A program made the translations under genes and the position numbers. DNA of 54,678 bases from a virus. The stretch is from IMG/VR virus record IMGVR_UViG_3300028283_000235, positions 1-54,678 of that record. One strand, written 5' to 3'. The first letter of the stretch is position 1; the number at the start of each line of letters is the position of its first letter. The notes beneath the pieces were generated by a model that was given only the letters and a program-made list of their open reading frames with translations, was not told the DNA's origin and ran no database searches. Shown one piece after another: positions 3,192 to 53,781 of the stretch.

Positions 3192-3201
3192 CTAAAATGA
3201 A

Positions 3202-3238
3202 AAACCGATTTTTTATACTATATATAAAAAATCGGTTT
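3202..3238 (-). terminator. Perfect AT-rich hairpin between pncA and fibre gene
   Basis: AAACCGATTTTTTATA at 3202-3217 pairs perfectly over 16 bases with 3223-3238, with a 5-base loop (CTATA). It lies after the pncA stop and just before the fibre start. It may terminate the NAD operon, and it also contains a TATATA-type promoter-like core, so a dual role is possible. Confidence 0.6.
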
Positions 3239-3258
3239 CACATTTTAATTTACAAAGT

Positions 3259-3939
3259 CTAGAACTTCATCTCATATTTTAATTTAAAACTTAATTCATC
3301 ATCTAAACTTTTCATTGTATGAAATTTCTCATCAGATAGAAATATATCCAAATCATTTGAATTGATAATCATGACCCCATTCTTCGCTAAATCTTCCACC
3401 GTTGACGTCATTTCACCAATAAAACGAGTAGCGTCCACAATAAAATAAGTCTTAAAGAATACTGAACAATCTAGAGCTGTGTCCTTTACACAATAATCAC
3501 CAGCCAATCCTACAACATAAACTTCATCAACACCAGAGTCTTTGAAATACTTCTCAACAGATACACCGTCATCGTTTACCCCAACAAATCCACTAAAAGG
3601 GTGTTCTGATTTATTATCACCTTTAGTGAAAATAGGTGCTCCATATAATTGAAGATCAGGATGAAATTTAGCACAGTCCGTAAATTGTACACAATGAGGT
3701 GGCCAGATAATCATATCTTTTCCATCTACTTTAACTACATCCAAAACATTTGTTCCTGGATTATTAGATGTAAATGACATGTGATCTTCTGGATGCCAAT
3801 CTCTTGACACGATCACCATATTAAACTTATCTGAAATTTTATTAATAATAGGCACAATTTTATCCCCAAAAGGTACAGCCAAACTTCCACCTGGCATAAA
3901 ATCTAACTGAGGATCTACGATAAATAACGCTCTTTTCAT
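3259..3939 (-). CDS. pncA: Nicotinamidase
   Basis: The product (226 residues) hydrolyses nicotinamide to nicotinate and ammonia, the first step of deamidating NAD salvage. It has the isochorismatase/nicotinamidase fold with the full set of expected residues: Asp9 (IVDPQLDF), Lys106 (IFTKGD) and Cys150 (GLAGDYCV) as catalytic triad, and Asp47, His49 and His53 (SRDWHPEDH) for metal. WPPHCVQ is the family signature; the residue after VQ is Phe-Thr rather than the usual Gly-Thr. Length is normal for PncA. It is the last gene of the NAD cluster, 1 base after a lipoprotein gene. Its product would feed PncB (11375-12550). Confidence in the family is high. Confidence 0.93.
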   Translation of the reverse strand: MKRALFIVDPQLDFMPGGSLAVPFGDKIVPIINKISDKFNMVIVSRDWHPEDHMSFTSNNPGTNVLDVVKVDGKDMIIWPPHCVQFTDCAKFHPDLQLYGAPIFTKGDNKSEHPFSGFVGVNDDGVSVEKYFKDSGVDEVYVVGLAGDYCVKDTALDCSVFFKTYFIVDATRFIGEMTSTVEDLAKNGVMIINSNDLDIFLSDEKFHTMKSLDDELSFKLKYEMKF

Positions 3940-3940
3940 A

Positions 3941-4300
3941 TTATTTTATATTAATTGTATTACCAACTTTATCAAAGGTCTGTTTCTCAACTAATGTATC
4001 TGGTAACGTAAAACTTTTACCGTCTTTAGTCACCATTATAGTTCCTCTTTTAGGAAAATGAATAGGATTAGGACAAGTTCCACTATGAGTTAGAAAACTA
4101 TTATATGTAGGATGAATTGAAAAATCCCCGTTTGGTTTTAAATATCCTAAATATTCATGACCTTCAATATTGTAAACATATATTGTTGCTCCATTCACAA
4201 CAACACTCCTAACAGATCCCGCTTGATCTTTCGGTTTATCTGACTTTCCACACCCAAATAAAAATAAGAACGCCACTAAAATTAATATTATTCTTTTCAT
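3941..4300 (-). CDS. Small lipoprotein of unknown function
   Basis: The 119-residue product starts MKRIILILVAFLFLFGCGKSD, a lipoprotein signal peptide with lipobox LFGC, so it should be lipid-anchored at Cys17 in the periplasm or outer membrane. The mature part has several Tyr/Gly-rich beta-like segments and a Cys (SGTCPNP) but no family I recognise. It sits between pncA and nadR in the operon that also holds a TBDR. Phage lipoproteins such as T5 Llp block the receptor against superinfection, so an exclusion or receptor-associated role is possible; this is inference from context only. Confidence 0.7.
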   Translation of the reverse strand: MKRIILILVAFLFLFGCGKSDKPKDQAGSVRSVVVNGATIYVYNIEGHEYLGYLKPNGDFSIHPTYNSFLTHSGTCPNPIHFPKRGTIMVTKDGKSFTLPDTLVEKQTFDKVGNTINIK

Positions 4301-4320
4301 ATCACAAAGTTAATTATTTT

Positions 4321-5304
4321 TTACTTACTAAAAAAAAAATTTTTCTTAACAATATCTATAGCCTTCTTCGTCCTACTATCCCAATCAGTCCCAGTTACTA
4401 TCTCCATCTTCAAACCTTTAGATTTTAAATAGTTATAATGATAATTACGAAGTTCGTTTCTTTCTTCTATTGGCAATCTTGTGCCGTCTTGTACATATGG
4501 AGCGTCACATTCTAGGAAGATATGAAGATCAAATGTATTTGCTTCCTCAACCCAATTTTCGTATTCAGGTATTTTATCAAAGAAGTATTTAGAATACATC
4601 TTAGTAGTATTTAAATCAGTATCACTAAATAATATTTTATTAGCGTAATGAACTTTACCAATTAAATCTGTGGCGTGTGCTTTCCCAATGTTTACAATAT
4701 CTTCAATTGTAGTTTCAAGTGAGGCTTTTACTATTCTTCTTCCCCACTCAGGCACGTGGTTAGTATTGAAATGTCTAGCTAATATTTCTGTTAATGTAGT
4801 TTTACCTGTTGATTCCGTTCCACATATACATATTTTTCTTACGAAATATGGTCTAGCCTCCTTTGAAATGAAATCCCAATATTTAACAGGATTGTTTCTG
4901 ATTTCGGTTCCGCTAATAGGTACTACTTCTCTTTGTTGATCAAACATAATATGTTCAATTCTCATACATTCAGCCACATAATCACCGTAAGGTTCGGAAG
5001 AGAAGATAACATCTAAATCTGGAAACATTTGTTTAAGATGTTTAGCCCATACTTTTGATACTTCCATATCTGATACAGATGTATAGGGAAGTTTGGCGTC
5101 AGTATATCGAATAACAACTTTATCGTCTGTTCTATACGTATTTAATAACCAATTTAACCTAATGTTTCCAGGTATATCTTCCTCATCTTCATTCATACAA
5201 AGAAGCACATATAAAATATCACATTTATCTTTAGCGAAGTTTATAAGTGCCTCATGTCCTAAATGCATTCCATCAAATTTTCCTAATACCAGCCCTCTTA
5301 TCAT
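4321..5304 (-). CDS. nadR: NadR-like NMN adenylyltransferase / ribosylnicotinamide kinase
   Basis: This is a 327-residue two-domain enzyme. The N-terminal nucleotidyltransferase domain has GKFDGMHLGH (HxGH at residues 14-17) and ISGTEIRNN near residue 130, the two ATP-binding signatures of NMN adenylyltransferases. The C-terminal half is a P-loop kinase with GTESTGKTT (Walker A, near residue 160), as in the ribosylnicotinamide kinase domain of NadR. The helix-turn-helix repressor domain of enterobacterial NadR is absent, so this is the enzymatic form only. It would turn imported nicotinamide riboside into NMN and then NAD. Its start overlaps the stop of the upstream nuclease gene by 4 bases (ATGA). 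Whether it also accepts NaMN cannot be told from sequence. Confidence 0.92.
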   Translation of the reverse strand: MIRGLVLGKFDGMHLGHEALINFAKDKCDILYVLLCMNEDEEDIPGNIRLNWLLNTYRTDDKVVIRYTDAKLPYTSVSDMEVSKVWAKHLKQMFPDLDVIFSSEPYGDYVAECMRIEHIMFDQQREVVPISGTEIRNNPVKYWDFISKEARPYFVRKICICGTESTGKTTLTEILARHFNTNHVPEWGRRIVKASLETTIEDIVNIGKAHATDLIGKVHYANKILFSDTDLNTTKMYSKYFFDKIPEYENWVEEANTFDLHIFLECDAPYVQDGTRLPIEERNELRNYHYNYLKSKGLKMEIVTGTDWDSRTKKAIDIVKKNFFFSK

Positions 5305-6182
5305 ATGAAAATATTTTTTATTTTTTCAAAATTGTTATTTACTATTAAATGATATTGAAATTGTTTTTCAGCCTCTTTCATTTTGATTTCGTTTATTTCC
5401 TTATTTTTGTTCCAAAGATAATCTGATTTAATTTCGAATACTATATCAGTATCTTTAATCTTATAATCTATATAATAATTGTGTTCTTTTTCGTTTAAAT
5501 CCTTATAACTAATTCTCGGTCCTCTTTCTATCAAATCCATTTTACCTATCGATTCAACATATTTTAAAAATTTCAATTCATAAGAACTTTGATAATCGAT
5601 ATCTTTATATTGTCTGATTTTAGCGTTTCCCCAGCCACTATTGGGTTTCCTTCTTCCATTTTTAAAAGCATCAATCGCTGATAAACTCATTCTTTTCCTT
5701 GTCTCATCAGATAGTTTAATCCCTCTTCTCTTTTCAGCCACTTTTAACCAACCTTGTTTTTCTTTTATTTTTTCTTTAGAAGACTCCCATGTAAAAGGGT
5801 TGCCGTTTTTTTCCATCCATGTTTTATGGGATAATTTTTGGTGTTCAGACGGAGATATTCCAAATTTCCCATTTCTTTGCCCCTTATTTTTACATTTACT
5901 ACACAAATGATAATTTTTGATCGGATCTAAATCTCTTATTCTTCTTTCAAAAATTTCTTCACAATCGTCACATTTAACCTTTATAAATTTTGTCCTATAT
6001 TCTCTTTTAGTTTTCAATTTAGACCAATGTAATAAATATTTAGTATTTATCACAGGCATAAATTCAAAATCTTTCTCCCATCTAGCACATTGCGATTTAT
6101 TATTTAATACGATCTCTACATTTTCATGCCCTCTATATACATAACTGATTTTTATTATTATATATAAATGTATAAAAATCAA
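5301..6182 (-). CDS. Homing-type endonuclease with PD-(D/E)XK-like core
   Basis: The product of up to 293 residues has a Cys-x2-Cys pair (CDDCEE, CSKCKN) resembling a zinc finger. A NUMOD3-like DNA-binding segment follows (RRGIKLSDETRKRMS), then a C-terminal nuclease-like core with SSYELKFLKYVE, YYIDYKIKD and VFEIKSDYLW, which fits a PD-(D/E)XK or Vsr-like active site. Such genes are usually mobile and free-standing. It is inserted between nadR and pnuC and overlaps nadR by 4 bases. The start is uncertain: the longest frame opens with TTG at 6182 and the first in-frame ATG is at 6059. A role in NAD metabolism is unlikely. Confidence 0.65.
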   Translation of the reverse strand: MIFIHLYIIIKISYVYRGHENVEIVLNNKSQCARWEKDFEFMPVINTKYLLHWSKLKTKREYRTKFIKVKCDDCEEIFERRIRDLDPIKNYHLCSKCKNKGQRNGKFGISPSEHQKLSHKTWMEKNGNPFTWESSKEKIKEKQGWLKVAEKRRGIKLSDETRKRMSLSAIDAFKNGRRKPNSGWGNAKIRQYKDIDYQSSYELKFLKYVESIGKMDLIERGPRISYKDLNEKEHNYYIDYKIKDTDIVFEIKSDYLWNKNKEINEIKMKEAEKQFQYHLIVNNNFEKIKNIFI

Positions 6183-6202
6183 TTTTTACCATTTCATACT
6201 GG

Positions 6203-6775
6203 TCATATTTGATTTTTATACGTTTTTGTCCAATTGACTAATCCGTAAGTGGCTATAGCAGTGATTAAGATATATTCAATTGAAATTAAATTAATCCCTT
6301 TTAAGTAAAATAAAGCTATACTTAGTATATCTACTATAATCCATAATACCCAAGCTTCTAAATATTTTTTTGATAAACCAAATACTGCAACCATACTTAT
6401 AACAGTTATTGTAGCGTCCAGTATAACATACTCAGTTTGGAAAAAACTAAGAATAAAAGTTCCAATTAAACATAGAAAAGCTGTTATTAAACTATATGAT
6501 ATAATATTTTTTAATCCTATTGTTTTAATTTTTTTACCTGCGTCTCTATCCCAATAATACCAACCATATATGGATACTCCAGTAAAAAATGTTTGAAGAA
6601 CCATTTGTCCAAATAATCCATTTTTTAAGAATAAAAAGAAGAAAAGTATTTGCCCAACAATACCAATGGGCCAATTCCATATCTTAGCTCTAGTCGCAAA
6701 TAAAACTGCTATAAGCGATACAATAGATCCAAATAGTTCTAAATAAGATAGTTCGTACCCTAATACTAACATCAT
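6203..6775 (-). CDS. pnuC: PnuC-family nicotinamide riboside transporter
   Basis: The 190-residue protein is almost entirely hydrophobic, with about seven membrane segments. It carries PnuC-family features such as WNWPIGIVGQ, a Trp/Tyr-rich YGWYYW motif and EAWVLWIIVD. PnuC proteins let nicotinamide riboside cross the inner membrane by facilitated diffusion, trapped afterwards by the kinase activity of NadR. In Bacteroidetes the close relative PnuT carries thiamine, so substrate is decided here by context: nadR, nadE, pncA and pncB lie in the same cluster and no thiamine gene is seen. It overlaps the HAD gene upstream by ATGA. Two ATG codons stand in tandem at the start. Confidence 0.88.
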   Translation of the reverse strand: MMLVLGYELSYLELFGSIVSLIAVLFATRAKIWNWPIGIVGQILFFFLFLKNGLFGQMVLQTFFTGVSIYGWYYWDRDAGKKIKTIGLKNIISYSLITAFLCLIGTFILSFFQTEYVILDATITVISMVAVFGLSKKYLEAWVLWIIVDILSIALFYLKGINLISIEYILITAIATYGLVNWTKTYKNQI

Positions 6776-7341
6776 TTTTTAATTAAAGGATGATTTATTC
6801 TATCAAGAAAATCAACAAGAGCTTCGTAAGCTGATTCCATACCAGCCCTATCGTCAATTAAAATACTGTAAAATATTTTAGGACTTGATGAATTAAAGAA
6901 ACTAGGATTCTCATTTATTTTATGGAAAGGAATTTCATTCTTATCAAGATATTCTTTTACAAAATCGTATCTTTCTTTAGCACTACCAGTCCAAACAATT
7001 AATTCAATCCCAGGAACTTTTCCAAGTTTACGAATTAATTCAATTACCATTTCATAAGATTCTCCTCTGTTATGATAATCGAATACAGTATTATCAAAAT
7101 CGTAAGCTACGATTAAATCTCCGTGTAATTTATATTCTGTTACTAGTCTATCTACCACATTTTCGTGGTTCATGTAATGATCTCTCATATATTTAGTTTT
7201 AGATTTATTATTCCACCATTTCTTCAAAAAGTTAATAGTATCAGTAAGAGATTGACCTTGATCAAAATCACCACCATGCACTTCTTCAACTACAAATCTT
7301 TTAAGTATTCTATAAACACTCTGATTATATTTTTCTTTCAT
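6772..7341 (-). CDS. HAD-superfamily phosphatase-like protein
   Basis: Motif I is AYDFDNTVFD (DxDxT), motif II WTGS and motif III ILIDDRAG, which together define the haloacid dehalogenase fold with the nucleophilic and acid Asp residues present. It should be a phosphatase acting on a small molecule or nucleotide. Its 3' end overlaps pnuC (ATGA), so it is co-translated with the transporter; dephosphorylation of NMN to transportable riboside is one possible role, but nothing in the sequence fixes the substrate. The ATG at 7341 is chosen because upstream ATGs at 7356 and 7389 overlap the preceding gene by 32 and 65 bases, and AGGA precedes 7341. Confidence 0.75.
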   Translation of the reverse strand: MKEKYNQSVYRILKRFVVEEVHGGDFDQGQSLTDTINFLKKWWNNKSKTKYMRDHYMNHENVVDRLVTEYKLHGDLIVAYDFDNTVFDYHNRGESYEMVIELIRKLGKVPGIELIVWTGSAKERYDFVKEYLDKNEIPFHKINENPSFFNSSSPKIFYSILIDDRAGMESAYEALVDFLDRINHPLIKK

Positions 7342-7567
7342 TTTTCCTTTTATCATATTGTGCGTTATATCTTTTCTCACTCCAACCACTTATACTATTA
7401 CAGTAGCCACAACCACACTCTATTATAAATGCCCCACAATGTTTACAATGCCATTCGCTAGCTTCACAATAAGGTGTGCCACAATGAATTAGTTTTAAAT
7501 AATTATTGTTTGGTTCGTGTTTACACTTACTGACCTTATCCCAAAATTTATTTGTTATTTTTTCCAT
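7325..7567 (-). CDS. Small Cys/His-rich zinc-ribbon-like protein
   Basis: The product has 80 residues and nine Cys, with CKHEP, HCGTPYC, HCKHCG and CGCGYC, enough for one or two zinc sites. The His-Cys-Lys-His-Cys-Gly pattern resembles a zinc ribbon. It lies between the TBDR and HAD genes, overlapping both by about 20 bases, so it belongs to the NAD operon by position. I see no link to NAD chemistry; a small regulator or nucleic-acid-binding protein is possible. Confidence 0.65.
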   Translation of the reverse strand: MEKITNKFWDKVSKCKHEPNNNYLKLIHCGTPYCEASEWHCKHCGAFIIECGCGYCNSISGWSEKRYNAQYDKRKNERKI

Positions 7568-9653
7568 AATTCAAAGTCATTTTTAAAGAAGCAAAAAAGT
7601 TAATTGGTGCACCAACAAAATATAATGGTTTTGTACCGTCCCAATTCAATTGTCCACTATTAAAATATTTTACATCTGTTATATTATTTACAAATATGTT
7701 AAAATCAACCCATTTCCAATTAATACCTATTCTACCGTTAAGTGTATAGTAAGCATCTATAACTTCAGCCAAATCATATCCCATATAAGGAATATATCCA
7801 ATAACGCTATAATCTTGATATCTATAAGCTAAACCAACAGTAAACCATTTATATTTATAATACCCTTCAACATTACCAATCCATTTAGGAGATAATATCG
7901 GTGTAGTTATCATGTTATTACTTTGAACAACACCACAATCATTATAAGATCCATTTATATTTACACCAAATCCGTTATCACATTTATATCTAAAATCAGT
8001 TTCGATACCTCTCCTATAACTCTTATCTACATTATCGTGTAAAGGGACACCACTAGCTCCAATTTTACCGTTTAATACAATCTCGTTGCTAAAATTCATA
8101 TAAAAGAAATTGAAATCCCAAGAAAGGTTATCAGTTAAAACTCTAAAACCTAACTCGTTATCAATTGATCTTTCAGGATGAAGATTATTATATACGGGAT
8201 TTCCGATAGAATCACATGGTAAATAGTCATATCCATTAAATATATCATTTCTAGATGGTTCTCTATTTGTAACACCAAAACTGTAATAGAAAACTGTATT
8301 ATTATACTTGTAATCAATACCTAAATCATAATTAATAAAATTCCAAGTAAATGTTGGGAGATTAACGTTATAATGAGGCATGTAATATTCATCATATGAA
8401 ATATCGCCATTGTATTTGAAATCTGTATATCTATATTGAATATCACCAAAAAGATTTAACCCTTCCCAAACATTGTATCTAGCTTTAAAATAAGCACTTA
8501 ACTCATTCCTGTAACCAGTGTTTGTGTACATATACCCATAAAGATCATTATTATCAGAGTGCTGTCTGTTATATGTATAAGCATGAGTTCCAACGTAAAA
8601 ATTAAATCTACTGATTCTCTTAGTGAGATTAACGTAAGCACCAACCCAATTAGATTTGAAATTATATTTATCTATACCATAATTAACTGAGCTATCAGAA
8701 GATGGAATTCCTAAAAAGTTTTTATAATCAAATGTATAATAACCAGTTAAAAAATTATAATAGACAGCGTAATTCAATCTTGTATTTGAATTAAAATCTA
8801 TAGCGTGATGGAATTGAAGATGGTATTGTTCAAATTGATCATGCTCTTTATCTGTTGCTCCATTAGTTCTTCTATCTCTCCAAACTGAATCATAAGGAAC
8901 TCCTAACCACGCTAATTGATTTTGTTGTCTTCCAGCAAAAGCTATAAATTTTAGTTTGCTCTTACCTATATCATAGAATGAATTTAAGAAAAAACTCTGA
9001 CTATGATTACCAGAGTGGTATTTATATCCGTCTGTTGATATATCAGAAAACTGAATATAGAATCCCCCTTTTTTCCATTTTTGATCTATTTGGAAACCAA
9101 TTTTCATAGAATTGAATGATCCATATCCAAATGTCGCAGATACACTAGTTTTTATTGGTAAATGAGAATCAAAATTTAAACTTCCACCAAAACTAGATAC
9201 ACCGTTTTTTGTTAATCCGTTACCCCTTTGGATTTGAATCATATCAAGTGTCTGAAAGAAATCTGGATAATTAGAGAAGTAACATCCCTGATCCTCAGGT
9301 TCATTCATGGGCACTCCATTCAAAGTGAAGTTGATACGAGTCTGATCAATACCTCTTAATCTAATATATGAATATCCCCAAGGGCTACCTGCATCTGAAT
9401 ATGATGTAATAGCTGGTGTAGTATTTAATATAGTAGATGGCTCTTGTCCGTAATTTTTTGTTTCTATTTCTTGTTTTGAAAGATTATCAAAAGTAATAGG
9501 AGTAATAAAAGTTGCTTGGTGTGGATAAGGTGCAGAAACTTCTATTTGCTGAAGTTTAATTGTGTCCTTATGTAGAGTATATCCTTTAAGGGTATCTTGA
9601 CTAAATCCATTTATAAATAAAATGGAGAAAAATAAAATTAATATTTTTTTCAT
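7548..9653 (-). CDS. TonB-dependent outer-membrane receptor
   Basis: This 701-residue protein has a signal peptide (MKKILILFFSILFINGFSQ), a TonB-box-like QIEVSA near residue 40 and a plug domain (STILNTTPAITSY, YIRLRGIDQTRINFTLNGVPMNEPED, GGSLNFDS). A long region of alternating aromatic beta-strands follows, as expected for a 22-strand barrel. No N-terminal carboxypeptidase-like SusC domain is seen. TBDRs take up scarce ligands with energy from TonB-ExbBD. Placement between pnuC and nadE suggests it brings nicotinamide riboside or a related pyridine across the outer membrane; thiamine or another ligand cannot be excluded. A TBDR in a phage genome is unusual. A short TonB is encoded at 53272-53781. 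Confidence 0.9.
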   Translation of the reverse strand: MKKILILFFSILFINGFSQDTLKGYTLHKDTIKLQQIEVSAPYPHQATFITPITFDNLSKQEIETKNYGQEPSTILNTTPAITSYSDAGSPWGYSYIRLRGIDQTRINFTLNGVPMNEPEDQGCYFSNYPDFFQTLDMIQIQRGNGLTKNGVSSFGGSLNFDSHLPIKTSVSATFGYGSFNSMKIGFQIDQKWKKGGFYIQFSDISTDGYKYHSGNHSQSFFLNSFYDIGKSKLKFIAFAGRQQNQLAWLGVPYDSVWRDRRTNGATDKEHDQFEQYHLQFHHAIDFNSNTRLNYAVYYNFLTGYYTFDYKNFLGIPSSDSSVNYGIDKYNFKSNWVGAYVNLTKRISRFNFYVGTHAYTYNRQHSDNNDLYGYMYTNTGYRNELSAYFKARYNVWEGLNLFGDIQYRYTDFKYNGDISYDEYYMPHYNVNLPTFTWNFINYDLGIDYKYNNTVFYYSFGVTNREPSRNDIFNGYDYLPCDSIGNPVYNNLHPERSIDNELGFRVLTDNLSWDFNFFYMNFSNEIVLNGKIGASGVPLHDNVDKSYRRGIETDFRYKCDNGFGVNINGSYNDCGVVQSNNMITTPILSPKWIGNVEGYYKYKWFTVGLAYRYQDYSVIGYIPYMGYDLAEVIDAYYTLNGRIGINWKWVDFNIFVNNITDVKYFNSGQLNWDGTKPLYFVGAPINFFASLKMTLNYGKNNK

Positions 9654-9666
9654 ATTTTAGATTATT

Positions 9667-10602
9667 TTAGATGTACGAAGCCTCTAAGAGATTGTCTATG
9701 GCTTTATAATTATTATCCCTATCGAAATAAGGAGGATTGTTTCTTTTATGATTACCAGCAACAATCATTCTTTCAACTTTATCAATGAGTTTCTCGTCAA
9801 TTTTTGCAGCCTTCACTTTAGATGTTTCTTTCATGTAATGACCGATATTCTGCCATTTAATATCACGCTTATCGTCAATTTTAACTATGTGTTTCTTAAA
9901 CATCCCTAAATTAGAGTTGTTCCCACCTGTGAAGTCTTCTCTAATAGTCAAATATTTATCAATATCATCGTATTTGAAACCAATTTCGTCTTCGTCAGTC
10001 TGATCAAACCATAGCCCAGCAGAAGGAGCCTTAGTGATAATCCTTTCAGGTACACCTAATTCTCTTGCTAATTCTCTAATTTCATATTTGAAAAAATCAG
10101 CAATAGGTTCGATATCAACCCCCGCTCCACCGTCACCAGCCTTGGTATAATAACCAAGGTACTCTTCTGTTTTATTAGTTGTCCCCAAAACAAGATAACC
10201 AAGTTCTTCGGCTAATGCCCTGAGTGTTACCATTCTAAGACGAGCTTTAATATTAGGAAGGACAAGTTTAGAAGAGTTGCCAACCATTGGTGTGATTTCT
10301 CCACCAAAAAGAACAGATGCTGTTCTACCTAAATTAATTGTATCTAAAGTTACACCAAATGCTTCGGCAACAAGTTTGGCGTCTTCTTCGTCTTCAACTC
10401 TTAACTGCTGACCTTCAGCAGCGCAGGGTAAAGCAAAACACCTAACATTTTCTTTACCAACAGCTTTGACCGCTAATCCTAAAGATACAGCAGAGTCAAT
10501 GCCACCAGATAGTCCGAGTACAAAACCTTTAAAACCTGTTTTTTCAACGTAACTTTTCAACCACATAGAAGTGATTTCGATATTTTCTTTAATGTTTTTC
10601 AT
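9667..10602 (-). CDS. nadE: NAD synthetase, ammonia-dependent type
   Basis: The 311-residue enzyme amidates nicotinate adenine dinucleotide to NAD using ATP and ammonia. The PP-loop SGGIDS is at residues 32-37. Other family regions are visible: TTNKTEEYLGYYTKAGDGGAG, DIEPIADFFKYEIRELARELG and PSAGLWFDQTDEDEIG. The N-terminal glutaminase domain of long NadE is absent, so it should depend on free ammonia, some of which PncA would release. It lies between the TBDR and a small gene overlapping by ATGA. It completes the deamidating salvage route begun by PncA and PncB. Confidence 0.95.
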   Translation of the reverse strand: MKNIKENIEITSMWLKSYVEKTGFKGFVLGLSGGIDSAVSLGLAVKAVGKENVRCFALPCAAEGQQLRVEDEEDAKLVAEAFGVTLDTINLGRTASVLFGGEITPMVGNSSKLVLPNIKARLRMVTLRALAEELGYLVLGTTNKTEEYLGYYTKAGDGGAGVDIEPIADFFKYEIRELARELGVPERIITKAPSAGLWFDQTDEDEIGFKYDDIDKYLTIREDFTGGNNSNLGMFKKHIVKIDDKRDIKWQNIGHYMKETSKVKAAKIDEKLIDKVERMIVAGNHKRNNPPYFDRDNNYKAIDNLLEASYI

Positions 10603-10871
10603 AAATATTTCCTTCCTTTTTTAATCCATTTATAATCGTAATTTTCAACACTGCTGCTTTTTCCGTCTGTTGGTATTACTATTGTAATTGAATGTAAATA
10701 TTTTATACACTCGTACATTTGTATGTATTTTCCAAACCAAATGTATTCACCGATGCCCATCTTTGTTGGAAGATAAGCGTACTTTATAACTGATTTTTTG
10801 CTCCCTTCTGTGAGGTTCCCACACATTAGATTTGGATCAGCCTGCACAAATATTTCTTTAGATTTTTTCAT
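10599..10871 (-). CDS. Small hypothetical protein
   Basis: About 90 residues, beginning MKKSKEIFVQADPNLMCGN. No domain is recognised; the sequence is soluble, mixed alpha/beta-looking and basic at the C-terminus (YKWIKKGRKYL). It overlaps nadE by 4 bases (ATGA), implying translational coupling, and overlaps the upstream HAD-like gene by 14 bases. The ATG at 10871 is preferred over a GTG at 10883. Its function within the NAD operon is unknown. Confidence 0.6.
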   Translation of the reverse strand: MKKSKEIFVQADPNLMCGNLTEGSKKSVIKYAYLPTKMGIGEYIWFGKYIQMYECIKYLHSITIVIPTDGKSSSVENYDYKWIKKGRKYL

Positions 10872-11373
10872 GATATGTTTCACTTGTTTTAAAACTCCAA
10901 TTTTTATTAGGAATATTCTTTGTTTTCTTAAAGTATTTCAAAAACGGTTTCCAATCTTTCTCAGGTCTAAAACCAGCCTTATCTTCAAAATAAACATTAA
11001 AGTAAGGTTTCTTATCGTAACAACCAAAACATCCACTAGCTTCAGAAATTTCAGGGTTTTCATTAACATATTTAAAGTGAATTCCATCCATTTCAAACTG
11101 TTCCATATAACTCTTTATCTCATTAGGATAAGAAGAAGTATGAATAAACAAAACCATATCAGGACGATTCTTACTAATATACTGTAAGGTTTCCTTAGCG
11201 TAAGGATAATAATTGATTCTAAACTCTTCACCACTTTTTCTATAATCTGGTTTAGATATAACACCATGAATATCAAAGGCGTGATAAGTTTCATACCACT
11301 GTTTGTTAAAAGCGTGAGCAAACATTTTTTCAGTCCACTCGAGTAATGCTGGTTTATAAAATGGATTTCTCAT
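10858..11373 (-). CDS. HAD-like protein with altered motif I
   Basis: The 171-residue product shows HAD-fold traces: HAFDIHGVI as motif I, FIHTSSY as motif II and NVYFEDKAGF as motif III. The second Asp of DxD in motif I, the usual general acid/base, is replaced by His, so phosphatase activity may be changed or lost. The spacing resembles the other HAD protein of the cluster (6772-7341), which keeps DxD. It lies 1 base from the end of pncB. A role as phosphatase, phosphotransferase or binding protein in pyridine metabolism is possible but unproved. Confidence 0.6.
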   Translation of the reverse strand: MRNPFYKPALLEWTEKMFAHAFNKQWYETYHAFDIHGVISKPDYRKSGEEFRINYYPYAKETLQYISKNRPDMVLFIHTSSYPNEIKSYMEQFEMDGIHFKYVNENPEISEASGCFGCYDKKPYFNVYFEDKAGFRPEKDWKPFLKYFKKTKNIPNKNWSFKTSETYHEKI

Positions 11374-11374
11374 A

Positions 11375-12550
11375 TTACGAAATTTTTAAAACTCTTTTTG
11401 CTAATTCAATAGTTTCTTTATCACCTGTATATTTACCAGGTTCGTCTGATAATTTAACACAGGGTACCCATTCACCATCAATTAAAACTGAGTCCATCTT
11501 TATTACAATATTCAAAGGTTTCACTCCAGGAATGTCGTTGGTAAACCAAGTTCCAATTCCATATGATGTATTAATTCTACCTCTAAAACAATTTTCAATT
11601 TTTAAAACTTTATCAAAATCAAGTGCGTCACTAAAAACAATAGTTTTAGATTTAATTACACTATCATCAATTCCTAATTTCTTATAATGTTCAATAACCT
11701 TTTCACCAAATTTAATAGGATCTCCACTATCGTGCCTCACTCCATCAAATGTTTTAGCAAAAAGTGTGTCGAAAGAATTGAAGAAAGATTCAGTTGTATA
11801 GGTATCAGATAAGGCTATACCTAAGTCTCCACCATATACTTTAACCCAATTCTGTAAGGCTATTTTGTTTGCCTCGTGGAAACCATATTTGGCTCCGTGA
11901 AACATAATCCATTCGTGTGCCATTGTACCAATGGCTTTTATACCGTATTTCAAAGCGAAATATACATTAGATGTACCTACAAAATTATCGCCCGCTGATA
12001 ACATAAGATGGTTAATAACAGCACTCTGGTTATCGTGTGAAAATCTACGACGAGTACCGAAGTCTGCAAACTTAATACCAAAAGTCTTAAAATCTTTACC
12101 TTTTTTAGTGTTGATTTCATATAATTGTTTAACGTCTTCTGGGTATTCCTGGCCAGTCATTCTATAATAAGTTTCGGAAATCATTGCAAGTAAAGGAACT
12201 TCCCAAAGGATTGTTCTAAACCAATATCCTTCAATTAAAATTTCCACATCACCACCTTTTTGTGTGATCTGAACTTCGTCTCCATCAAATTCGTAACCAC
12301 TAATATAGTCAATGTAAAAAGGAGATAAGAATCTGATTTTTTTAAGGTTATCTCTACCCGAGAACTTTTCACTGGTAATGAAGGCCAAATTGTCTATCTC
12401 TTTTCTGAGTTCAACTGCAAACCCTTCAGGGAACTGTGTTTTACCACGATTGATAAATTTATATCTCACTATTTCTTTAGGATATAAAGCAATGACGGCC
12501 TGCTGTTGCGTTAGCTTATATAAATCATTATCTAAAATTCCGTGTATCAT
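11375..12550 (-). CDS. pncB: Nicotinate phosphoribosyltransferase
   Basis: The 391-residue enzyme joins nicotinate with PRPP to give nicotinate mononucleotide. Family signatures include LDNDLYKLTQQQAV at the N-terminus, FADFGTRRRFS, GTMAHEWIM with the catalytic His, SDTYTTESFF, GVRHDSGDP and FSDALDF, followed by the phosphate-binding YGIGTWFTND. These separate it from the nicotinamide phosphoribosyltransferase NadV. Length is typical of bacterial PncB. It is the second gene of the operon read from 13205, directly after a GIY-YIG gene. Its substrates are supplied by PncA (3259-3939) and the phage PRPP synthetase (30686-31636). Confidence 0.95.
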   Translation of the reverse strand: MIHGILDNDLYKLTQQQAVIALYPKEIVRYKFINRGKTQFPEGFAVELRKEIDNLAFITSEKFSGRDNLKKIRFLSPFYIDYISGYEFDGDEVQITQKGGDVEILIEGYWFRTILWEVPLLAMISETYYRMTGQEYPEDVKQLYEINTKKGKDFKTFGIKFADFGTRRRFSHDNQSAVINHLMLSAGDNFVGTSNVYFALKYGIKAIGTMAHEWIMFHGAKYGFHEANKIALQNWVKVYGGDLGIALSDTYTTESFFNSFDTLFAKTFDGVRHDSGDPIKFGEKVIEHYKKLGIDDSVIKSKTIVFSDALDFDKVLKIENCFRGRINTSYGIGTWFTNDIPGVKPLNIVIKMDSVLIDGEWVPCVKLSDEPGKYTGDKETIELAKRVLKIS

Positions 12551-12554
12551 AACA

Positions 12555-13205
12555 TTATATTTTAATTGTTTTAATATATTTCCAACCTTTATATTCTTTA
12601 TTTTCGTTTTTGATTAAATCTTTAAATGTGTTAATTGATATTTTTTGTTTTCTTGAAAATTTCACTATACCCTCCTTAGTTTCATATTCTCTTCCATCTG
12701 GTCCTTTAAATAAATATATTTTAACATATTTTCCGAGATTTTTACCAATCATGGAACTTTTCATTTTCTTTAATGTTTCTTCTGTGTGAGGATGTTCAAT
12801 TTTTCTTTTATCCCAAGCTTTAGATAAAGATTTTTTATGTACTTCTGATTTTGGTTTATTTTTAGAAGCATCACTCATTTTTTTTCTAGATTCATCAGTC
12901 CTTTTTTTACCAGTGTTTTTTAATACTATTTTATCAATAGTTTCTTGTGTTATTCCACTAAATCCATCCCCACCATATGATCTTCCAATTGAATTATAAA
13001 AAATTATATAGTGTTTTTCTTTATCATTTAACTCTTCGTAATTATTACATTCACATAATATACATTTATCAAAATTTTCTTTACCGTATTTTTTAATAGC
13101 TTGTTTAATAACTATTCCACTACCAAAATAATTTTTCTTATTTCTTGTATCTTTACCTATATAAATTTTACCATTTATTTTGTTTGTTATTTTATAAATT
13201 TCCAT
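12555..13205 (-). CDS. GIY-YIG homing endonuclease
   Basis: The N-terminus IYKITNKINGKIYIGKDT matches the GIY-YIG nuclease core, and GSGIVIKQAIKKYGKENF provides the following helix of the fold. The C-terminal half carries NUMOD3-like DNA-binding repeats (TDESRKKMSDASK, TEETLKKMKSSMIGK) and a final NUMOD-like part. Free-standing GIY-YIG genes are selfish elements common in T4-like phages. It is the first gene of the operon, 4 bases upstream of pncB, so transcription of the NAD genes may pass through it. An exact TATATATTAAAA promoter-like motif lies 15 bases ahead of its start. Confidence 0.85.
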   Translation of the reverse strand: MEIYKITNKINGKIYIGKDTRNKKNYFGSGIVIKQAIKKYGKENFDKCILCECNNYEELNDKEKHYIIFYNSIGRSYGGDGFSGITQETIDKIVLKNTGKKRTDESRKKMSDASKNKPKSEVHKKSLSKAWDKRKIEHPHTEETLKKMKSSMIGKNLGKYVKIYLFKGPDGREYETKEGIVKFSRKQKISINTFKDLIKNENKEYKGWKYIKTIKI

Positions 13206-13220
13206 ATAACTTTTTATTAT

Positions 13221-13232
13221 TATATATTAAAA
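13221..13232 (-). promoter_or_regulatory. Candidate phage promoter for the NAD cluster
   Basis: An exact TTTTAATATATA on the minus strand, 15 bases before the GIY-YIG start that heads the NAD gene run. The same 12-mer recurs before other genes in the window. The following 240 bases up to the PspC gene hold no gene I can see, only AT-rich DNA with two copies of TTATACAAAT. Confidence 0.5.
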
Positions 13233-28147: not shown

Positions 28148-28476
28148 TTCATTAAAGTTTTTCTCAATGAATCCAACTCATCCCTCACCCCCACAATAAT
28201 AGATGCTAACAGTTTACAAAAAACTAAAACACAAACAATAATAGAAGCGAAGAAAGAAAATATGGCCCATCCTATTCCACCTAAAAAATAAACGCCAATA
28301 GGAATACCTACAAGTAGCAATACTGATACTATAACATATAGAACGATGTAAATAAACATATCTTGGTAAAGATCAATACCTTTAACAACAGTATTTCCAA
28401 CACCTAGTGATTTACTATCAGTCTTGTGATTTTCAAGATAACGTTTTGCTATAATTTTTGATAAAAATTTAATCAT
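28144..28476 (-). CDS. Small membrane protein
   Basis: The 110-residue protein has two adjacent membrane helices (about residues 36-58 and 62-88) with a basic N-terminal segment (SKIIAKRYLENHK). No known family. It overlaps 27746-28147 by ATGA and shares one base with the PPK2 gene, so it is translated together with both. Confidence 0.65.
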   Translation of the reverse strand: MIKFLSKIIAKRYLENHKTDSKSLGVGNTVVKGIDLYQDMFIYIVLYVIVSVLLLVGIPIGVYFLGGIGWAIFSFFASIIVCVLVFCKLLASIIVGVRDELDSLRKTLMK

Positions 28477-29336
28477 TATTTTTCGTTTAAAAGTTGTTCT
28501 TTATAAGTTGATAACATATCTGCTTTTTCCTTTGGTAAAACTGGATATTGTAAATCAAGTTCCTTCATTTTGTCTATGAGGATCTGTGAAACCAGAAGTC
28601 TTGCTAATTTTTTCTTATTACCAGGAACAACATACCAAGGAGATTTCTTTGTGGAAGTACCATTAATCATATCCTCGTAAGCTTCCATATAATTATCCCA
28701 ATAAGCTCTCTCCTTGAGGTCTGCATCAGAGAATTTCCAATTCTTTAACTTATCGTCAATTCTTTCAATAAGCCTTTCTTTCTGTTCATCTTTAGAAATG
28801 TTCAAGAAAATTTTAACAACTTCGATTCCATTACGTTGAAGATGATCCTCAAAACAACGAATATCCTTATATCTCTCTTCCCAAATATCTTTACCGATAA
28901 GAGATGGATGAATTTTTTGTTTTTCAACAAGGTTGTGAACTTTTACAACTAGCACTTCTTCGTAATAAGAACGATTGAATATACCTATATTACCACGTTC
29001 GGGTGCGAGTTTCTGAGCCTTCCATAACCAAGTGTGGTCCAGATCTTCAGCGGTTGGTTGTTTAAATGGATAAACGTTAGTAGCTTGTGGATTCAATCCA
29101 CTCATAACGTGTTTAATGATACCGTCTTTGCCACAAGTGTCCATTCCTTGTAAGATAATCAGCATTCCGTATTTGTCCTGCGCGTAGAGCATATCTTGCA
29201 TATGAGCAAGATCTCTAATACTTTCTACTAATTTAGTTTCAATTTCTTCTTTATCCAAATTAGTTTTAATTTCATTATTAAACTTAATTAATTTGAATTC
29301 TTTTAAACCTTCTATGGTATAGTCTTTAATTTTCAT
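28476..29336 (-). CDS. ppk2: Polyphosphate kinase 2 family protein
   Basis: The 286-residue protein has the PPK2 Walker A GMDTCGKDG (residues 64-72), the lid region WLWKAQKLAPERGNIGIFNRSYYEEVL with Walker B-like features, and FLNISKDEQKERLIERIDD. PPK2 enzymes transfer phosphate from polyphosphate to nucleoside mono- or diphosphates. The lack of tandem duplication and the Cytophaga-like sequence fit class III, which can phosphorylate AMP and ADP, but class is uncertain. ATP is consumed by NadR, NadE and Prs of this phage, so PPK2 may supply energy for NAD rebuilding from host polyphosphate. It leads the minus operon ending at 24392. Confidence 0.9.
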   Translation of the reverse strand: MKIKDYTIEGLKEFKLIKFNNEIKTNLDKEEIETKLVESIRDLAHMQDMLYAQDKYGMLIILQGMDTCGKDGIIKHVMSGLNPQATNVYPFKQPTAEDLDHTWLWKAQKLAPERGNIGIFNRSYYEEVLVVKVHNLVEKQKIHPSLIGKDIWEERYKDIRCFEDHLQRNGIEVVKIFLNISKDEQKERLIERIDDKLKNWKFSDADLKERAYWDNYMEAYEDMINGTSTKKSPWYVVPGNKKKLARLLVSQILIDKMKELDLQYPVLPKEKADMLSTYKEQLLNEK

Positions 29337-30468: not shown

Positions 30469-30705
30469 TTATCCGATTAAAATAATTTGTTCGTTGCTTT
30501 CATATGGTTTATCATTCAAGTAATCCAAATCAGAAGTTAAATGTACTACATTGTTAAGTTCTCCCTTCTGAATTGACCAAGATCCATTCTCCCCATCAAA
30601 GGCTACTATTAAATTCGGATTATGTGCTTCATATACTTGAAGATATACTATCAAATCTCTAACTGTACAATTTTTTTTCATATCTTTATTTGCTACTATT
30701 ACCAT
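30469..30705 (-). CDS. Small hypothetical protein
   Basis: The 78-residue protein begins MVIVANKDMKKNCTVRDLIVYL and contains PNLIVAFDGENGSWSI. No family recognised. It overlaps the 3' end of the PRPP synthetase gene by 20 bases and is thus in its operon. Confidence 0.6.
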   Translation of the reverse strand: MVIVANKDMKKNCTVRDLIVYLQVYEAHNPNLIVAFDGENGSWSIQKGELNNVVHLTSDLDYLNDKPYESNEQIILIG

Positions 30706-31636
30706 TTAAAAATAACTTACTAATTGATTTGTAGTCAACAATATTTCTGATAGCCCTTGATAAAAGAGTTCCCACAGAAATAACTGTAATCTTTTCAGAT
30801 TTTTCTCTCAGCGCAATTGTATCAGTAACAATGAGTTCCGTTAGAGCTGATTTTGTTATGTTTTCATAAGCGTGTCCACTCATAACTGGGTGAGTACAAA
30901 CCGCTCTCACACTCATTGCCCCTTTTTCCATCATCAGAGCTGCACATCTACAAAGAGTTCCACCAGTGTCGATAATATCATCAACAATAATTACGTGTTT
31001 CCCTTTAACGTCACCGATGAGTAACATTTCATCTATCTCGTTGGCTTTTGAACGATGTTTATAACAGATAACCATTTCTGCTCCAAGATGATTGGCTAGA
31101 TGTTTTGCCTTTTTAGTTCCACCAAGGTCTGGTGATGCTACCACTATATTTTCTAATCCTAATTCTTTGAGATAAGGGACGAAAACGTATGAAGCGTATA
31201 ACTGATCAACTTTAATATCAAAGAAACCGACAATTTGGTCGGCGTGTAGGTCGATGGTTATAACTCTTGTTGCCCCAGCGCTTTCGAGAAATTTCGCGAT
31301 TAATTTCGCACTAATACCAACTCTTGGTTGGTCTTTTCTATCTTGTCTACCGTAACCGTAGTAGGGGATAACAGCCACAATTTCTTTAGCTGATGCTTTC
31401 TTGGCTGCGTCTACCATTTGGAATAACTCCCAATAATTTTCAAATGGTGCTTGACCTGATTGAATCAGGAACACTTTTCTACCTCTGATATTTTCTTTAA
31501 AGACTGGTAGAATTTCACCATCAGAGAACTTCTGAAGTTCGTATTGTCCCAATCCTATTTTCAGGTTTCTGGCCACAATTTTAGCTAATTCAGTGCTACC
31601 ACTACCTGCGAAAACCTTAACCTTTTTCTTATTCAT
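30686..31636 (-). CDS. prs: Ribose-phosphate pyrophosphokinase (PRPP synthetase)
   Basis: Starting at the ATG at 31636, the 316-residue enzyme makes PRPP from ribose 5-phosphate and ATP. It shows FSDGEILPVF, YYGYGRQDRK (catalytic region), TIDLHADQIVGFF, VASPDLGGTKKA and the PRPP loop VDDIIDTGGTL. All are typical of class I PRS, and length is normal. The GTG at 31687 gives a longer frame without homology-like content. PRPP is the cosubstrate of PncB, so this gene, though 18 kb away, fits the NAD pathway; it also supports nucleotide synthesis. Confidence 0.95.
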   Translation of the reverse strand: MNKKKVKVFAGSGSTELAKIVARNLKIGLGQYELQKFSDGEILPVFKENIRGRKVFLIQSGQAPFENYWELFQMVDAAKKASAKEIVAVIPYYGYGRQDRKDQPRVGISAKLIAKFLESAGATRVITIDLHADQIVGFFDIKVDQLYASYVFVPYLKELGLENIVVASPDLGGTKKAKHLANHLGAEMVICYKHRSKANEIDEMLLIGDVKGKHVIIVDDIIDTGGTLCRCAALMMEKGAMSVRAVCTHPVMSGHAYENITKSALTELIVTDTIALREKSEKITVISVGTLLSRAIRNIVDYKSISKLFLNGNSSK

Positions 31637-52200: not shown

Positions 52201-53275
52201 ATCTTTAAGTAATAATTGTTATGCAACATATCCCTACTACGTAAATAGTGTACCCGATGATTACGTTGCGACTCTATTAACATTCAACGAGAATAAAAGT
52301 TATAAAGTTCCAATTTACAGATTTCCAGGACCTTATGAACCAATTTTTAAGGACGTAAATCTATTTAAAGGTGGATATTTTTGTTACAATAACATTACAA
52401 ACGTAACGGGTATGACTTCTGGTATCACATCATCCAACGCTTCTATATCTTTCGAATATCCTAATACTGATTATAGTTGGTCAAATTTCCAAAATATGTG
52501 TAGTACTAATACGAATGGTTATGTTGAGATAAATCTAGTACCGAATACGATTGTTAATTCCAGATATCTTTGTATAAGGGGATTTGATTTTTCTAATATA
52601 CCATCAGAAGCTATTATCACTGGTTTAACATTAACCATTAGTAGGAAAGCGTTCATATATTCTTTTCCTAATATTTATGTTAAGGACGTGGGTGTTTTTC
52701 TAGCTAAAAATTCCTACGATATAAATTTAAAATCAAATAATAGAATTTCACCTTACGGTCCTACGTATTGGGACACAAATCTTACAGATATTTCTTACGG
52801 TGGCGTGGACGATACGTGGGGAGACGTTTACTCTGGCACTGGTGGATGGTCAGGTAGTACATTGAAAGGCAGTGATCTAAATAATCCTTTATTTGGTGCA
52901 CTCATACAAGTGGAAATGAAAAATAGCGGAACCAGTACTAGCACTCTTTTACCACAAATTAAATGTGTCAGATTAACAGTTCAATATACATGGAACCAAA
53001 CTACATATACAGCAGATAGAACAGTATATTTTGATAATAACTATAAATTTGATACAACTCTCAACGATTTCGCTAAGATAGACGAATTAATATATTCCAA
53101 AGTGAATGAAACCACAAATATATTGAAAAATTCGCCAGATGTATATCATATATATCCTTGTGTAGATGAATTTGGTTACGAGTACAGTGATAGATTTATC
53201 TTTAAATCTTCTTGGGATAAAGAATTCTTTACTAAAACTAATAGTAATCTGAAAACAGATTCTGGTATAGTTTAA
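49253..53275 (+). CDS. Very large virion (baseplate or tail) protein
   Basis: The 1340-residue protein begins MINKSFQLLRTNPLLTSNFKV and contains no known catalytic motif. It is rich in Tyr, Asn and Asp throughout, with repeated beta-like segments and many YxNxY and YxYxD stretches, a composition typical of large baseplate-wedge or tail proteins of Bacteroidetes phages. It lies 16 bases after the 1092-residue gene, so both are one transcription unit. The C-terminal part includes GGVDDTWGDVYSGTGGWSG, resembling a carbohydrate-binding or fibre-like beta domain. T4 gp7-like placement is a guess. Confidence 0.62.
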   Translation: MINKSFQLLRTNPLLTSNFKVVVSSDYNLYLESFNTNAELSNIKYKHFPMYKSDYLENKIPYFYKKLPIDTAFDVRYDKDNNIVQNSFDKQFDTNYYAGGSYVEDQWYTEEFDYLAPLYIRKDNLPKGFVILRVDDPSGYNLNVSNNFELNSLNADNFHEIVDNWKCVKFFDMTYTSNLGEWLYTNYSNNDRVPKTAFEYHPERAEFSNWYGMDYTTGIYTYRPLFMDDRDEIETPHFRWEKFITEGYKRSGLIFPYILNLKFLFDDTPATPSALKKYSMNRYYGFYIENMDFVGSITSYRTPDMIPNTYLVNNIIVSGNTGMTTDQYCKLDYYDVPTVNPFVEKWDDNKEYYVFIDNTNDFYRTKTISGLYPVQRVLQNNKYIYKIVSDETLDSYWNTGYTNIKTVDINYGTYNILSAVTSNFFIDKYIDCVGDEKYMYGDLYLIRIDDKFHVLKYSSGMTTANDLTVNPSTGDLDDYKYYIQTDYAINLNSKFVEYWILGKSSPYYRQTAVQNTGYAPLSFPIYRVKFSDIKDFDFDRINTGFSDFDYEKTEYVDTNEEKLYAFDYNDPSIPPSKRVEKPGTSAQYKVINISSEYIAGDELYEVFDLGQQNTFSNTYGEENKLYDLNDIWRKNQSNCKWGFMGSMSHSDYPYKLNNNYEIGGPYNRTADPFYTIPNVISKNMDYFYRLGNFYDGTTGNTVYYKNQTTNIQYDFISGQIGSGFDIKAYFTLNFDYFTFFFKNKMYYEDKAQRYTKSYDKYAVFNYGDSNVPSVTLFKGLKIKIREVKNIYTDENNIITKVLYGNNTYNNYKMSIIFNENHEGINNGLMNNDIGTYIDTTQNGISVILNEKFQNVLIIINAKLPSGTTLNDISVFDEKEGLYYGKKLDGTYLNGYNNSNLTGITSTSLFTASNFINTINDYTNNYGLSVKYYYIRESNSKLYNGNVLISRGVSFNNVSTMKNIPNWNYYFPPFLLNIETPVNISLSNNCYATYPYYVNSVPDDYVATLLTFNENKSYKVPIYRFPGPYEPIFKDVNLFKGGYFCYNNITNVTGMTSGITSSNASISFEYPNTDYSWSNFQNMCSTNTNGYVEINLVPNTIVNSRYLCIRGFDFSNIPSEAIITGLTLTISRKAFIYSFPNIYVKDVGVFLAKNSYDINLKSNNRISPYGPTYWDTNLTDISYGGVDDTWGDVYSGTGGWSGSTLKGSDLNNPLFGALIQVEMKNSGTSTSTLLPQIKCVRLTVQYTWNQTTYTADRTVYFDNNYKFDTTLNDFAKIDELIYSKVNETTNILKNSPDVYHIYPCVDEFGYEYSDRFIFKSSWDKEFFTKTNSNLKTDSGIV

Positions 53276-53781
53276 TTCAAAGTGAATTTAACAGGAATAT
53301 TGAACTGTACTCTTACAGAATTACCTCTCTGTTTACCTGGTGTCCATTTTGGCATAGACTGAACAACTCTGATAGCCTCTTCGTCACATCCGCCACCAAT
53401 GCCTCTGAGTACTCTCACGTTTGAAACAGAACCATCTGCTTCAACTACAAAGGTCACAAAGACTTTACCCTGAATTCCAAGTTCTTTGGCTTCATCAGGG
53501 TACCTGATGTTTTTACTGAGAAATTCATACATTCCTTCAAGTACAGGCTGCTCTTCAACAACAGTAAAGATTTCTGCTGGTTTTGGCTCTCTTTTAAGAT
53601 CTTTAGAAGTCTTACTCTTATTCATATAAGACGCAATAACGGGATAAGCAATCACAGTGCCCAAAAATAGAATACCAATGATAAGAGAAGTCATAAGGTG
53701 TTTACCATACTTCTTTCTAAGAACATAAGAACCGTATTCTTTGTTCCTTTTTTCAAATAAGATTTCGTCGAAAGGTTTCAT
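53272..53781 (-). CDS. tonB: Short TonB energy-transducing protein
   Basis: The 169-residue protein starts with the Bacteroidetes-type cytoplasmic sequence DEILFEKRNKEYGSYVLRKKYGKHL and one membrane helix (about residues 29-51). It ends with a complete TonB C-terminal domain: NIRYPDEAKELGIQGKVFVTFVVEADGSV, GGCDEEAIRVVQSMPKWTPGKQRG, NIPVKFTLN. The periplasmic linker between helix and domain is only about 40 residues and lacks the long Pro-rich spacer of host TonB. It may drive the phage TBDR (7548-9653), or interfere with host TonB. Its stop overlaps the convergent giant gene by TTAA. Confidence 0.88.
   Translation of the reverse strand: MKPFDEILFEKRNKEYGSYVLRKKYGKHLMTSLIIGILFLGTVIAYPVIASYMNKSKTSKDLKREPKPAEIFTVVEEQPVLEGMYEFLSKNIRYPDEAKELGIQGKVFVTFVVEADGSVSNVRVLRGIGGGCDEEAIRVVQSMPKWTPGKQRGNSVRVQFNIPVKFTLN

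What the first reader, a model, noticed from the sequence alone, without database searches (positions are those of the whole stretch)
3259..13205. Phage-encoded two-route NAD salvage cluster
One minus-strand run holds pncA, nadR, pnuC, nadE and pncB with full active-site motifs, while prs (30686-31636) supplies PRPP and ppk2 may supply ATP. This gives a nicotinamide riboside route (PnuC, NadR) and a deamidating route (PncA, PncB, NadE) in one phage. Known phage NAD modules (KVP40 PnuC-NadR-NadV; the NARP pathways that rebuild NAD after defence) use other steps. The only missing step is a clear NaMN adenylyltransferase. It could counter NAD-depleting defences.
Basis: partly seen in the sequence, partly recalled or inferred. 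Interest (0 to 1): 0.87.

Follow-up and report, generated by a model that had tools for sequence, protein, structure and literature searches.

The report
Giant-phage NAD uptake and synthesis cluster
A fragment of a giant virus of bacteria carries genes that appear to pull vitamin B3 compounds through both membranes of its host and turn them into NAD by two separate routes, which could keep the infected cell supplied with NAD, for example when bacterial defences destroy it.

Summary
PncA, NadR, PnuC, NadE and PncB are intact, keep their catalytic motifs and evolve under purifying selection, in one minus-strand run of a Bacteroidota megaphage. The window is collinear with the complete 735-kb genome LR756501.

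The reading needs three corrections. (1) The most unusual gene was missed: a full TonB-dependent outer-membrane receptor (TBDR, 7548-9653). It belongs to a conserved Bacteroidota TBDR-(PnuC)-NadR operon: 68 of 80 bacterial homologues have NadR directly downstream. The three genes recur together in LR756502, LR745206, Lak phage and many viral contigs, apparently through more than one capture. The likely function is nicotinamide riboside uptake across both membranes. (2) The 'missing' NaMN adenylyltransferase exists in LR756501, about 400 kb away, as a MazG-NadD fusion, so that genome encodes both routes completely. (3) The deamidating route is not unique: Bacillus phage G has a PncA-like gene, PncB, NadD and NadE within 6 kb, phage X1 has pncB, nadD and nadE, and 12 of 80 viral PncB loci carry all four genes.

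It is a new variant of phage NAD salvage, distinguished by the outer-membrane import step and the doubled route. Counter-defence is plausible but untested.

The parts
11375..12550 (-). pncB, nicotinate phosphoribosyltransferase (nicotinate + PRPP -> NaMN); first gene of the run
   Evidence: TIGR01514 403 bits vs cut-off 270; nearest PDB 2im5 at 9e-94; dN/dS 0.065 vs LR756501
10858..11373 (-). HAD-like protein of unknown substrate; related ORFs lie near other viral pncB/nadE loci
   Evidence: AlphaFold model pLDDT 80; weak Foldseek matches to HAD phosphatases and BT_0820 (2obb); homologues in L145, L150, L153, L169, L185, L203; dN/dS 0.04
10599..10883 (-). 94-aa ORF of unknown function
   Evidence: conserved in LR756501; no Pfam match
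9667..10602 (-). nadE, ammonia-type NAD synthetase (NaAD -> NAD)
   Evidence: TIGR00552 216 bits vs cut-off 64; 2e18 at 2e-41; no glutaminase domain
7548..9653 (-). TonB-dependent outer-membrane receptor with signal peptide, plug and barrel; predicted uptake of nicotinamide riboside or a related pyridine compound
   Evidence: PF00593 and PF07715 over cut-offs; AlphaFold pLDDT 87.5; Foldseek top matches all TBDRs, TMt 0.83 to PqqU; 68/80 bacterial homologues precede NadR
7325..7567 (-). 80-aa Cys/His-rich ORF of unknown function
   Evidence: conserved in LR756501
6772..7389 (-). HAD-like protein (weak BT0820-family match), substrate unknown
   Evidence: NF046079 7e-6, under its cut-off; dN/dS 0.044
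6203..6775 (-). pnuC, nicotinamide riboside transporter of the inner membrane
   Evidence: PF04973 156 bits; TIGR01528 100 bits vs cut-off 42; PDB match NmPnuC 4qtn
5301..6182 (-). inserted endonuclease-like ORF (mobile, not part of the pathway)
   Evidence: absent from LR756501, where about 100 bp of its 3' end remain between nadR and pnuC
4321..5304 (-). nadR, NMN adenylyltransferase + ribosylnicotinamide kinase (NR -> NMN -> NAD), without the N-terminal regulator domain
   Evidence: TIGR01526 192 bits, below the 341-bit equivalog cut-off; PDB NadR 8x7f at 2e-39; phrog_3462 at 1e-73
3941..4300 (-). small predicted lipoprotein of unknown role
   Evidence: lipobox FLFGC after a hydrophobic start; conserved in LR756501
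3259..3939 (-). pncA, nicotinamidase (nicotinamide -> nicotinate); last gene of the run
   Evidence: 2wt9 nicotinamidase at 2e-41; PRK11609 131 bits, under its 174 cut-off
3201..3239 (-). terminator-like hairpin after pncA
   Evidence: 18-pair stem then T-run
30686..31636 (-). prs, ribose-phosphate diphosphokinase (PRPP for PncB)
   Evidence: NF002320 408 bits vs cut-off 297
28476..29336 (-). ppk2-type polyphosphate kinase (possible ATP/ADP supply; link to the NAD genes not shown)
   Evidence: TIGR03709 357 bits vs cut-off 247
53272..53781 (-). TonB energy transducer (possible partner of the TBDR; link inferred)
   Evidence: PF03544 79 bits vs cut-off 24.6; also in LR756501 at 470226-470459, not found in 27 other records

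Best explanation
This is a NAD-precursor uptake and NAD-synthesis operon of a Bacteroidota-infecting megaphage. Route 1: the TBDR, energised by host or phage TonB, brings nicotinamide riboside (or a close relative) across the outer membrane, PnuC takes it across the inner membrane, and NadR phosphorylates it to NMN and adenylates it to NAD. Route 2: PncA deamidates nicotinamide (the product of NADase action), PncB with PRPP from the phage Prs makes NaMN, a NadD makes NaAD, and NadE amidates it to NAD. NadD is encoded elsewhere in the complete relative; in the window's own phage it is either encoded likewise or supplied by the host. Shown here: genes, motifs, purifying selection, operon linkage, recurrence, and a complete gene set in LR756501. 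Inferred: enzyme activities, the ligand of the TBDR, and that the benefit is a sustained NAD supply during infection, including when host NADase defences fire.
For: Intact genes with motifs and low dN/dS. 68/80 bacterial TBDR homologues have NadR directly downstream, 45 of them with PnuC between; same strand, with overlap or spacing under about 300 bp once pnuC is counted in nearly all. TBDR-PnuC-NadR with overlapping starts and stops in LR756502 and LR745206; the same three genes within 9 kb in Lak-C1; 23/25 viral TBDR loci with NadR. No Rfam riboswitch (no TPP) in the window or in 14 bacterial operon loci, against a thiamine system. MazG-NadD in LR756501 over the TIGR00482 cut-off, with an 88% identical copy in another viral contig. 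Phage NadR and TBDR copies are polyphyletic among Bacteroidota; starred branches force at least 4 label changes in each tree, consistent with repeated capture and retention.
Against: No activity data. The TBDR ligand is inferred only from operon linkage. The window's own phage is known only as a 54.7-kb fragment, so its NadD is not shown. NadR scores below its equivalog cut-off. Host NAD genes were not examined and may supply the same steps. Nothing here shows that the genes act against a defence.
Confidence: 0.74

Rival explanations
1. The genes are general metabolic supply: they raise NAD for the long infection of a very large phage and have no specific role against defence.
For: Megaphages carry many auxiliary genes; a 2026 review reads phage NAD genes as supply for DNA synthesis (PMC13282480). 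NAD-dependent ligase genes occur in several relatives (LR756502, LR745206, LR756500).
Against: LR756501 has no NAD-dependent ligase. PncA specifically recycles nicotinamide, the NADase product, and two parallel routes look more like insurance than supply. These are arguments, not tests.
Confidence: 0.45
2. The TBDR is not a nutrient importer for the phage but a surface protein used in superinfection control or receptor competition, with the neighbouring lipoprotein as a blocker, while PnuC and NadR are separate.
For: The TBDR is the fastest-changing gene of the run (72% aa identity vs 88-96% for the others, loops more than plug). A small lipoprotein lies between nadR and pncA. Phage lipoproteins that block TBDRs are known (FhuA-Llp structure 8a60).
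Against: The TBDR sits upstream of PnuC-NadR in most bacteria and in unrelated megaphages, which links it to pyridine uptake; plug and C-terminal strands are conserved.
Confidence: 0.12
3. The PnuC homologue is a PnuT-type thiamine transporter and the TBDR a thiamine receptor.
For: Bacteroidota have TBDR-PnuT thiamine systems (PMC5613172 found; general knowledge), and PnuC and PnuT are one family.
Against: The partner gene is NadR in phages and bacteria; no TPP riboswitch in the window or in 14 bacterial operon loci.
Confidence: 0.05

Closest known systems
Vibrio phage KVP40 NAD salvage (PnuC-NadR-NadV; Lee et al. 2017, known here only through citations in PMC9723777 and PMC13282480 and general knowledge)
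   Same: PnuC and NadR for the nicotinamide riboside route; NAD salvage in a large phage
   Different: KVP40 uses NadV on nicotinamide; here no NadV (the only PF04095 match in LR756501 is PncB), instead PncA-PncB-(NadD)-NadE, plus an outer-membrane receptor
Bacillus phage G cluster gp275-gp277-gp281-gp283
   Same: isochorismatase-family (PncA-like), PncB, NadD and NadE in 6 kb
   Different: Gram-positive host; no PF04973 (PnuC) match in the genome; no receptor in the cluster; PncB only distantly related (32% over half its length)
Xanthomonas phage X1 (PMC13384950)
   Same: pncB, nadD, nadE in a phage, already discussed as a possible answer to NAD depletion
   Different: also nadM and NAMPT; no PnuC or receptor mentioned in the passages read
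NARP1 (Adps + Namat, PMC12774641)
   Same: phage pathway that restores NAD
   Different: starts from ADP-ribose and nicotinamide; no Namat/NAMPT-type enzyme here
Bacteroidota TBDR-PnuC-NadR operon
   Same: same gene order, strand and homology
   Different: bacterial; in the window the order is kept, but HAD-like genes and an endonuclease gene are interspersed, and pncB-nadE and pncA flank it

Membership tests
Phage NAD salvage module (KVP40 type) | PnuC transporter present | tested here: met
   PF04973 156 bits, TIGR01528 over cut-off
Phage NAD salvage module (KVP40 type) | NadR (NMN adenylyltransferase + NR kinase) | tested here: met
   TIGR01526 2e-56 over the full length, PDB NadR 2e-39; below the equivalog cut-off
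Phage NAD salvage module (KVP40 type) | NadV/NAMPT nicotinamide phosphoribosyltransferase | tested here: not met
   The only PF04095 protein is PncB, in the cluster and in complete LR756501
NARP1 | Namat (NAMPT-like transferase) with Adps | tested here: not met
   No second PF04095 protein in LR756501; PncB is an NAPRTase equivalog
Preiss-Handler (deamidating) NAD pathway | PncA, PncB, NadE | tested here: met
Preiss-Handler (deamidating) NAD pathway | NadD | tested here: inconclusive
   Not in the 54.7-kb window; present in the complete close relative as MazG-NadD, 124 bits vs cut-off 112
TonB-dependent receptors | plug and beta-barrel domains with signal peptide | tested here: met
   PF07715 and PF00593 over cut-offs; model pLDDT 87.5, Foldseek TMt to 0.83
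Bacteroidota TBDR-PnuC-NadR operon | TBDR homologue upstream of PnuC and NadR on one strand | tested here: met
   gene order in the window and in L004, L005 as in 45/80 bacterial loci
Phage counter-defence system | protects phage from an NAD-depleting defence | not testable with these tools
   needs infection experiments

The most novel reading that the evidence does not exclude
Megaphages of Bacteroidota repeatedly captured the host operon for nicotinamide riboside uptake, including its outer-membrane receptor (and, in this lineage, also carry a TonB), and joined it to a complete deamidating pathway, so that the phage itself controls the flow of NAD precursors from outside the cell to NAD while host defences drain it.
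Probability: 0.5. Interest if true: 0.77.

Novelty: new variant of a known kind. Interest (0 to 1): 0.6.

Why it matters
Published surveys of phage NAD synthesis list NadV, NadM and NadR only (PMC9503650, PMC7824862). Here the largest known phages carry an import chain that starts at the outer membrane, and a complete second route. If the receptor carries nicotinamide riboside, phages can bypass intracellular NAD depletion by drawing on outside precursor. It also gives a concrete, testable role to a TBDR in LR745206 that was noted before only as a SusC-like carbohydrate receptor (PMC9723777), and suggests the ligand of a common Bacteroidota receptor family for which I found no description.

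Tried and rejected
Namat/NARP1 or NadV reading of the phosphoribosyltransferase: rejected, it is a PncB equivalog and the only PF04095 protein of LR756501. Cellular contamination: rejected, 49 kb collinear with a complete phage that has terminase matches. Thiamine (PnuT) reading: no TPP riboswitch in 14 bacterial operon loci or the window, and the partner is NadR. NAD-dependent DNA ligase as the reason for NAD supply: none in LR756501, though present in relatives. A second adenylyltransferase of LR756501 (604331-604714) was tested as NadD and is CoaD. HAD protein as NMN phosphatase: the fold search gives only weak HAD matches, left open. A PADLOC scan of neighbouring proteins gave no defence role in the cluster. 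The papers on KVP40, on NARP (Osterman 2024) and on gut jumbo-phage NAD systems (Li et al. 2024, Microbiome 12:268) are not held, so the last could contain part of this; its title shows that jumbo-phage NAD synthesis is a published theme.

Full report
What the window is. The window is the whole of a 54,678-base IMG/VR virus record. Its genes are collinear with LR756501/LR756503, the 735,411-base phage genome of Al-Shayeb et al. 2020, at about 415-470 kb, mostly at 84-100% protein identity. That paper places the five phages over 634 kb in the Mahaphage clade with Bacteroidetes as predicted hosts (PMC7162821). LR756501 carries terminase matches. So the host of these genes is a phage, and a complete close relative can be searched.

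The observation. The five NAD genes are intact single ORFs on the minus strand with strong family matches and conserved motifs. Compared codon by codon with LR756501 they show dN/dS of 0.04-0.09 at dS near 0.6-0.8, which is maintenance, not decay. The run reads pncB, HAD-like, orf, nadE, TBDR, orf, HAD-like, pnuC, [inserted endonuclease], nadR, lipoprotein, pncA, and is followed by an 18-pair terminator-like hairpin at 3239-3201. prs and ppk2 are present as stated; that they serve this pathway is inference.

What was missed: the receptor. ORF 7548-9653 is a TonB-dependent outer-membrane receptor: plug and barrel domains over their Pfam cut-offs, a signal peptide, an AlphaFold model with mean pLDDT 87.5 and a full barrel, and Foldseek matches whose top rows are all TBDRs, with TMt up to 0.83 (to the PQQ receptor PqqU). 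Homologues were sought in one genome per bacterial species. Of the best 80, nearly all from Bacteroidota, 68 have NadR downstream on the same strand and 45 have PnuC as well; the spacing from receptor stop to nadR start clusters either at 0-270 bp or at the length of pnuC. No TPP or other riboswitch was found in 14 of these bacterial loci or in the window. The operon context therefore points to nicotinamide riboside or a close relative as ligand. The ligand itself is not shown.

Recurrence in phages. TBDR-PnuC-NadR lie back to back, with overlapping stops and starts, in LR756502 (642 kb) and LR745206 (635 kb); Prevotella phage Lak-C1 has the three genes within 9 kb. Among 25 viral contigs with the receptor, 23 have NadR and 16 PnuC nearby; several of these records carry terminase. 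In trees of NadR and of the receptor the phage copies are not one group: starred branches force at least four changes of the phage/bacteria label in each. The window and LR756501 group with L113 and L114 (and L112 for the receptor), away from LR756502 and LR745206. These are quick trees with SH-aLRT support only, and a few bacterial rows (L102, L108, L110, L111) may be phage contigs binned into genomes, so the exact number of captures is open.

The missing adenylyltransferase. LR756501 has three PF01467 proteins: NadR itself, a CoaD (604 kb), and at 30.9-31.8 kb a 306-residue protein with an N-terminal MazG domain and a C-terminal NadD, 124 bits to TIGR00482 against a cut-off of 112. Another viral contig holds an 88% identical copy. 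In L116 a related NadD lies between TBDR and NadR with PncA and PnuC in 8 kb, and L137 has NadE, PncA, PncB, NadD, TBDR and NadR within 15 kb; these two records are fragments without a terminase match. So both routes can be complete within one phage, as LR756501 shows. Whether the window's own phage has NadD cannot be seen from the fragment.

How new it is. NAD synthesis in phages is well known: NadR alone is found in 776 phage records here. Surveys name NadV, NadM and NadR (PMC9503650, PMC7824862). The deamidating route is less discussed but not new: phage G, Phosso and X1, and 12 of 80 viral PncB loci hold PncA, PncB, NadD and NadE within about 10 kb, 28 of 80 PncA and NadE (weak PncA matches may include other isochorismatases). 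A TBDR in LR745206 was noted earlier as SusC-like and assigned to carbohydrate uptake (PMC9723777). I found no paper that links a phage TBDR to PnuC and NadR, with the caveat that Li et al. 2024 on NAD systems of gut jumbo phages is not held.

The receptor changes fast. It is 72% identical to its LR756501 counterpart where the other genes of the run are 88-96%; the plug is 83% identical, barrel strands 71%, loops 63%. dN/dS is still 0.16, so this is faster change under constraint, perhaps with recombination, as expected of a surface protein. A TonB gene (53272-53781) occurs only in this lineage among 28 records searched; other phages would rely on host TonB.

Purpose. Counter-defence fits: PncA recycles the nicotinamide released by NADases, while the riboside route draws on outside precursor. 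General supply fits too, and no result here separates the two. I hold the uptake-and-synthesis reading at 0.74 and leave purpose open.

Noticed in passing
window 5301-6182; L001:10030-10132: An endonuclease-like ORF sits between pnuC and nadR; LR756501 keeps only about 100 bp matching its 3' end, as if a mobile gene had been lost there.
   Followed up: partly
window 12555-13205, 29557-30252, 33696-34493, 44651-45937: GIY-YIG endonuclease genes and a TnpB/IS605-like gene; the first has no counterpart in the matching place of LR756501 (the others were not checked in detail).
   Followed up: no
window 53272-53781; LR756501 470226-470459: A phage-encoded TonB with a TonB C-terminal domain and one membrane anchor.
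   Followed up: partly
window 15919-17382, 18855-22555, 34589-37411: A set of large proteins of unknown function that look related to each other and stand in tandem (shared motifs such as S-C-M-x(2)-G/Q and FMDRVY).
   Followed up: no
L121:8156-8635: A macro-domain-like ORF lies between TBDR and NadR in a viral contig, another possible ADP-ribose link.
   Followed up: no
window 10858-11373 and 6772-7389: Two HAD-like proteins in the run; relatives of the first occur near pncB or nadE in six other viral contigs, function unknown.
   Followed up: partly
L231 (Lak-C1) 7001-15891: A Lak phage carries TBDR, NadR and PnuC in one 9-kb stretch; the Lak paper that could be searched does not mention them.
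   Followed up: partly
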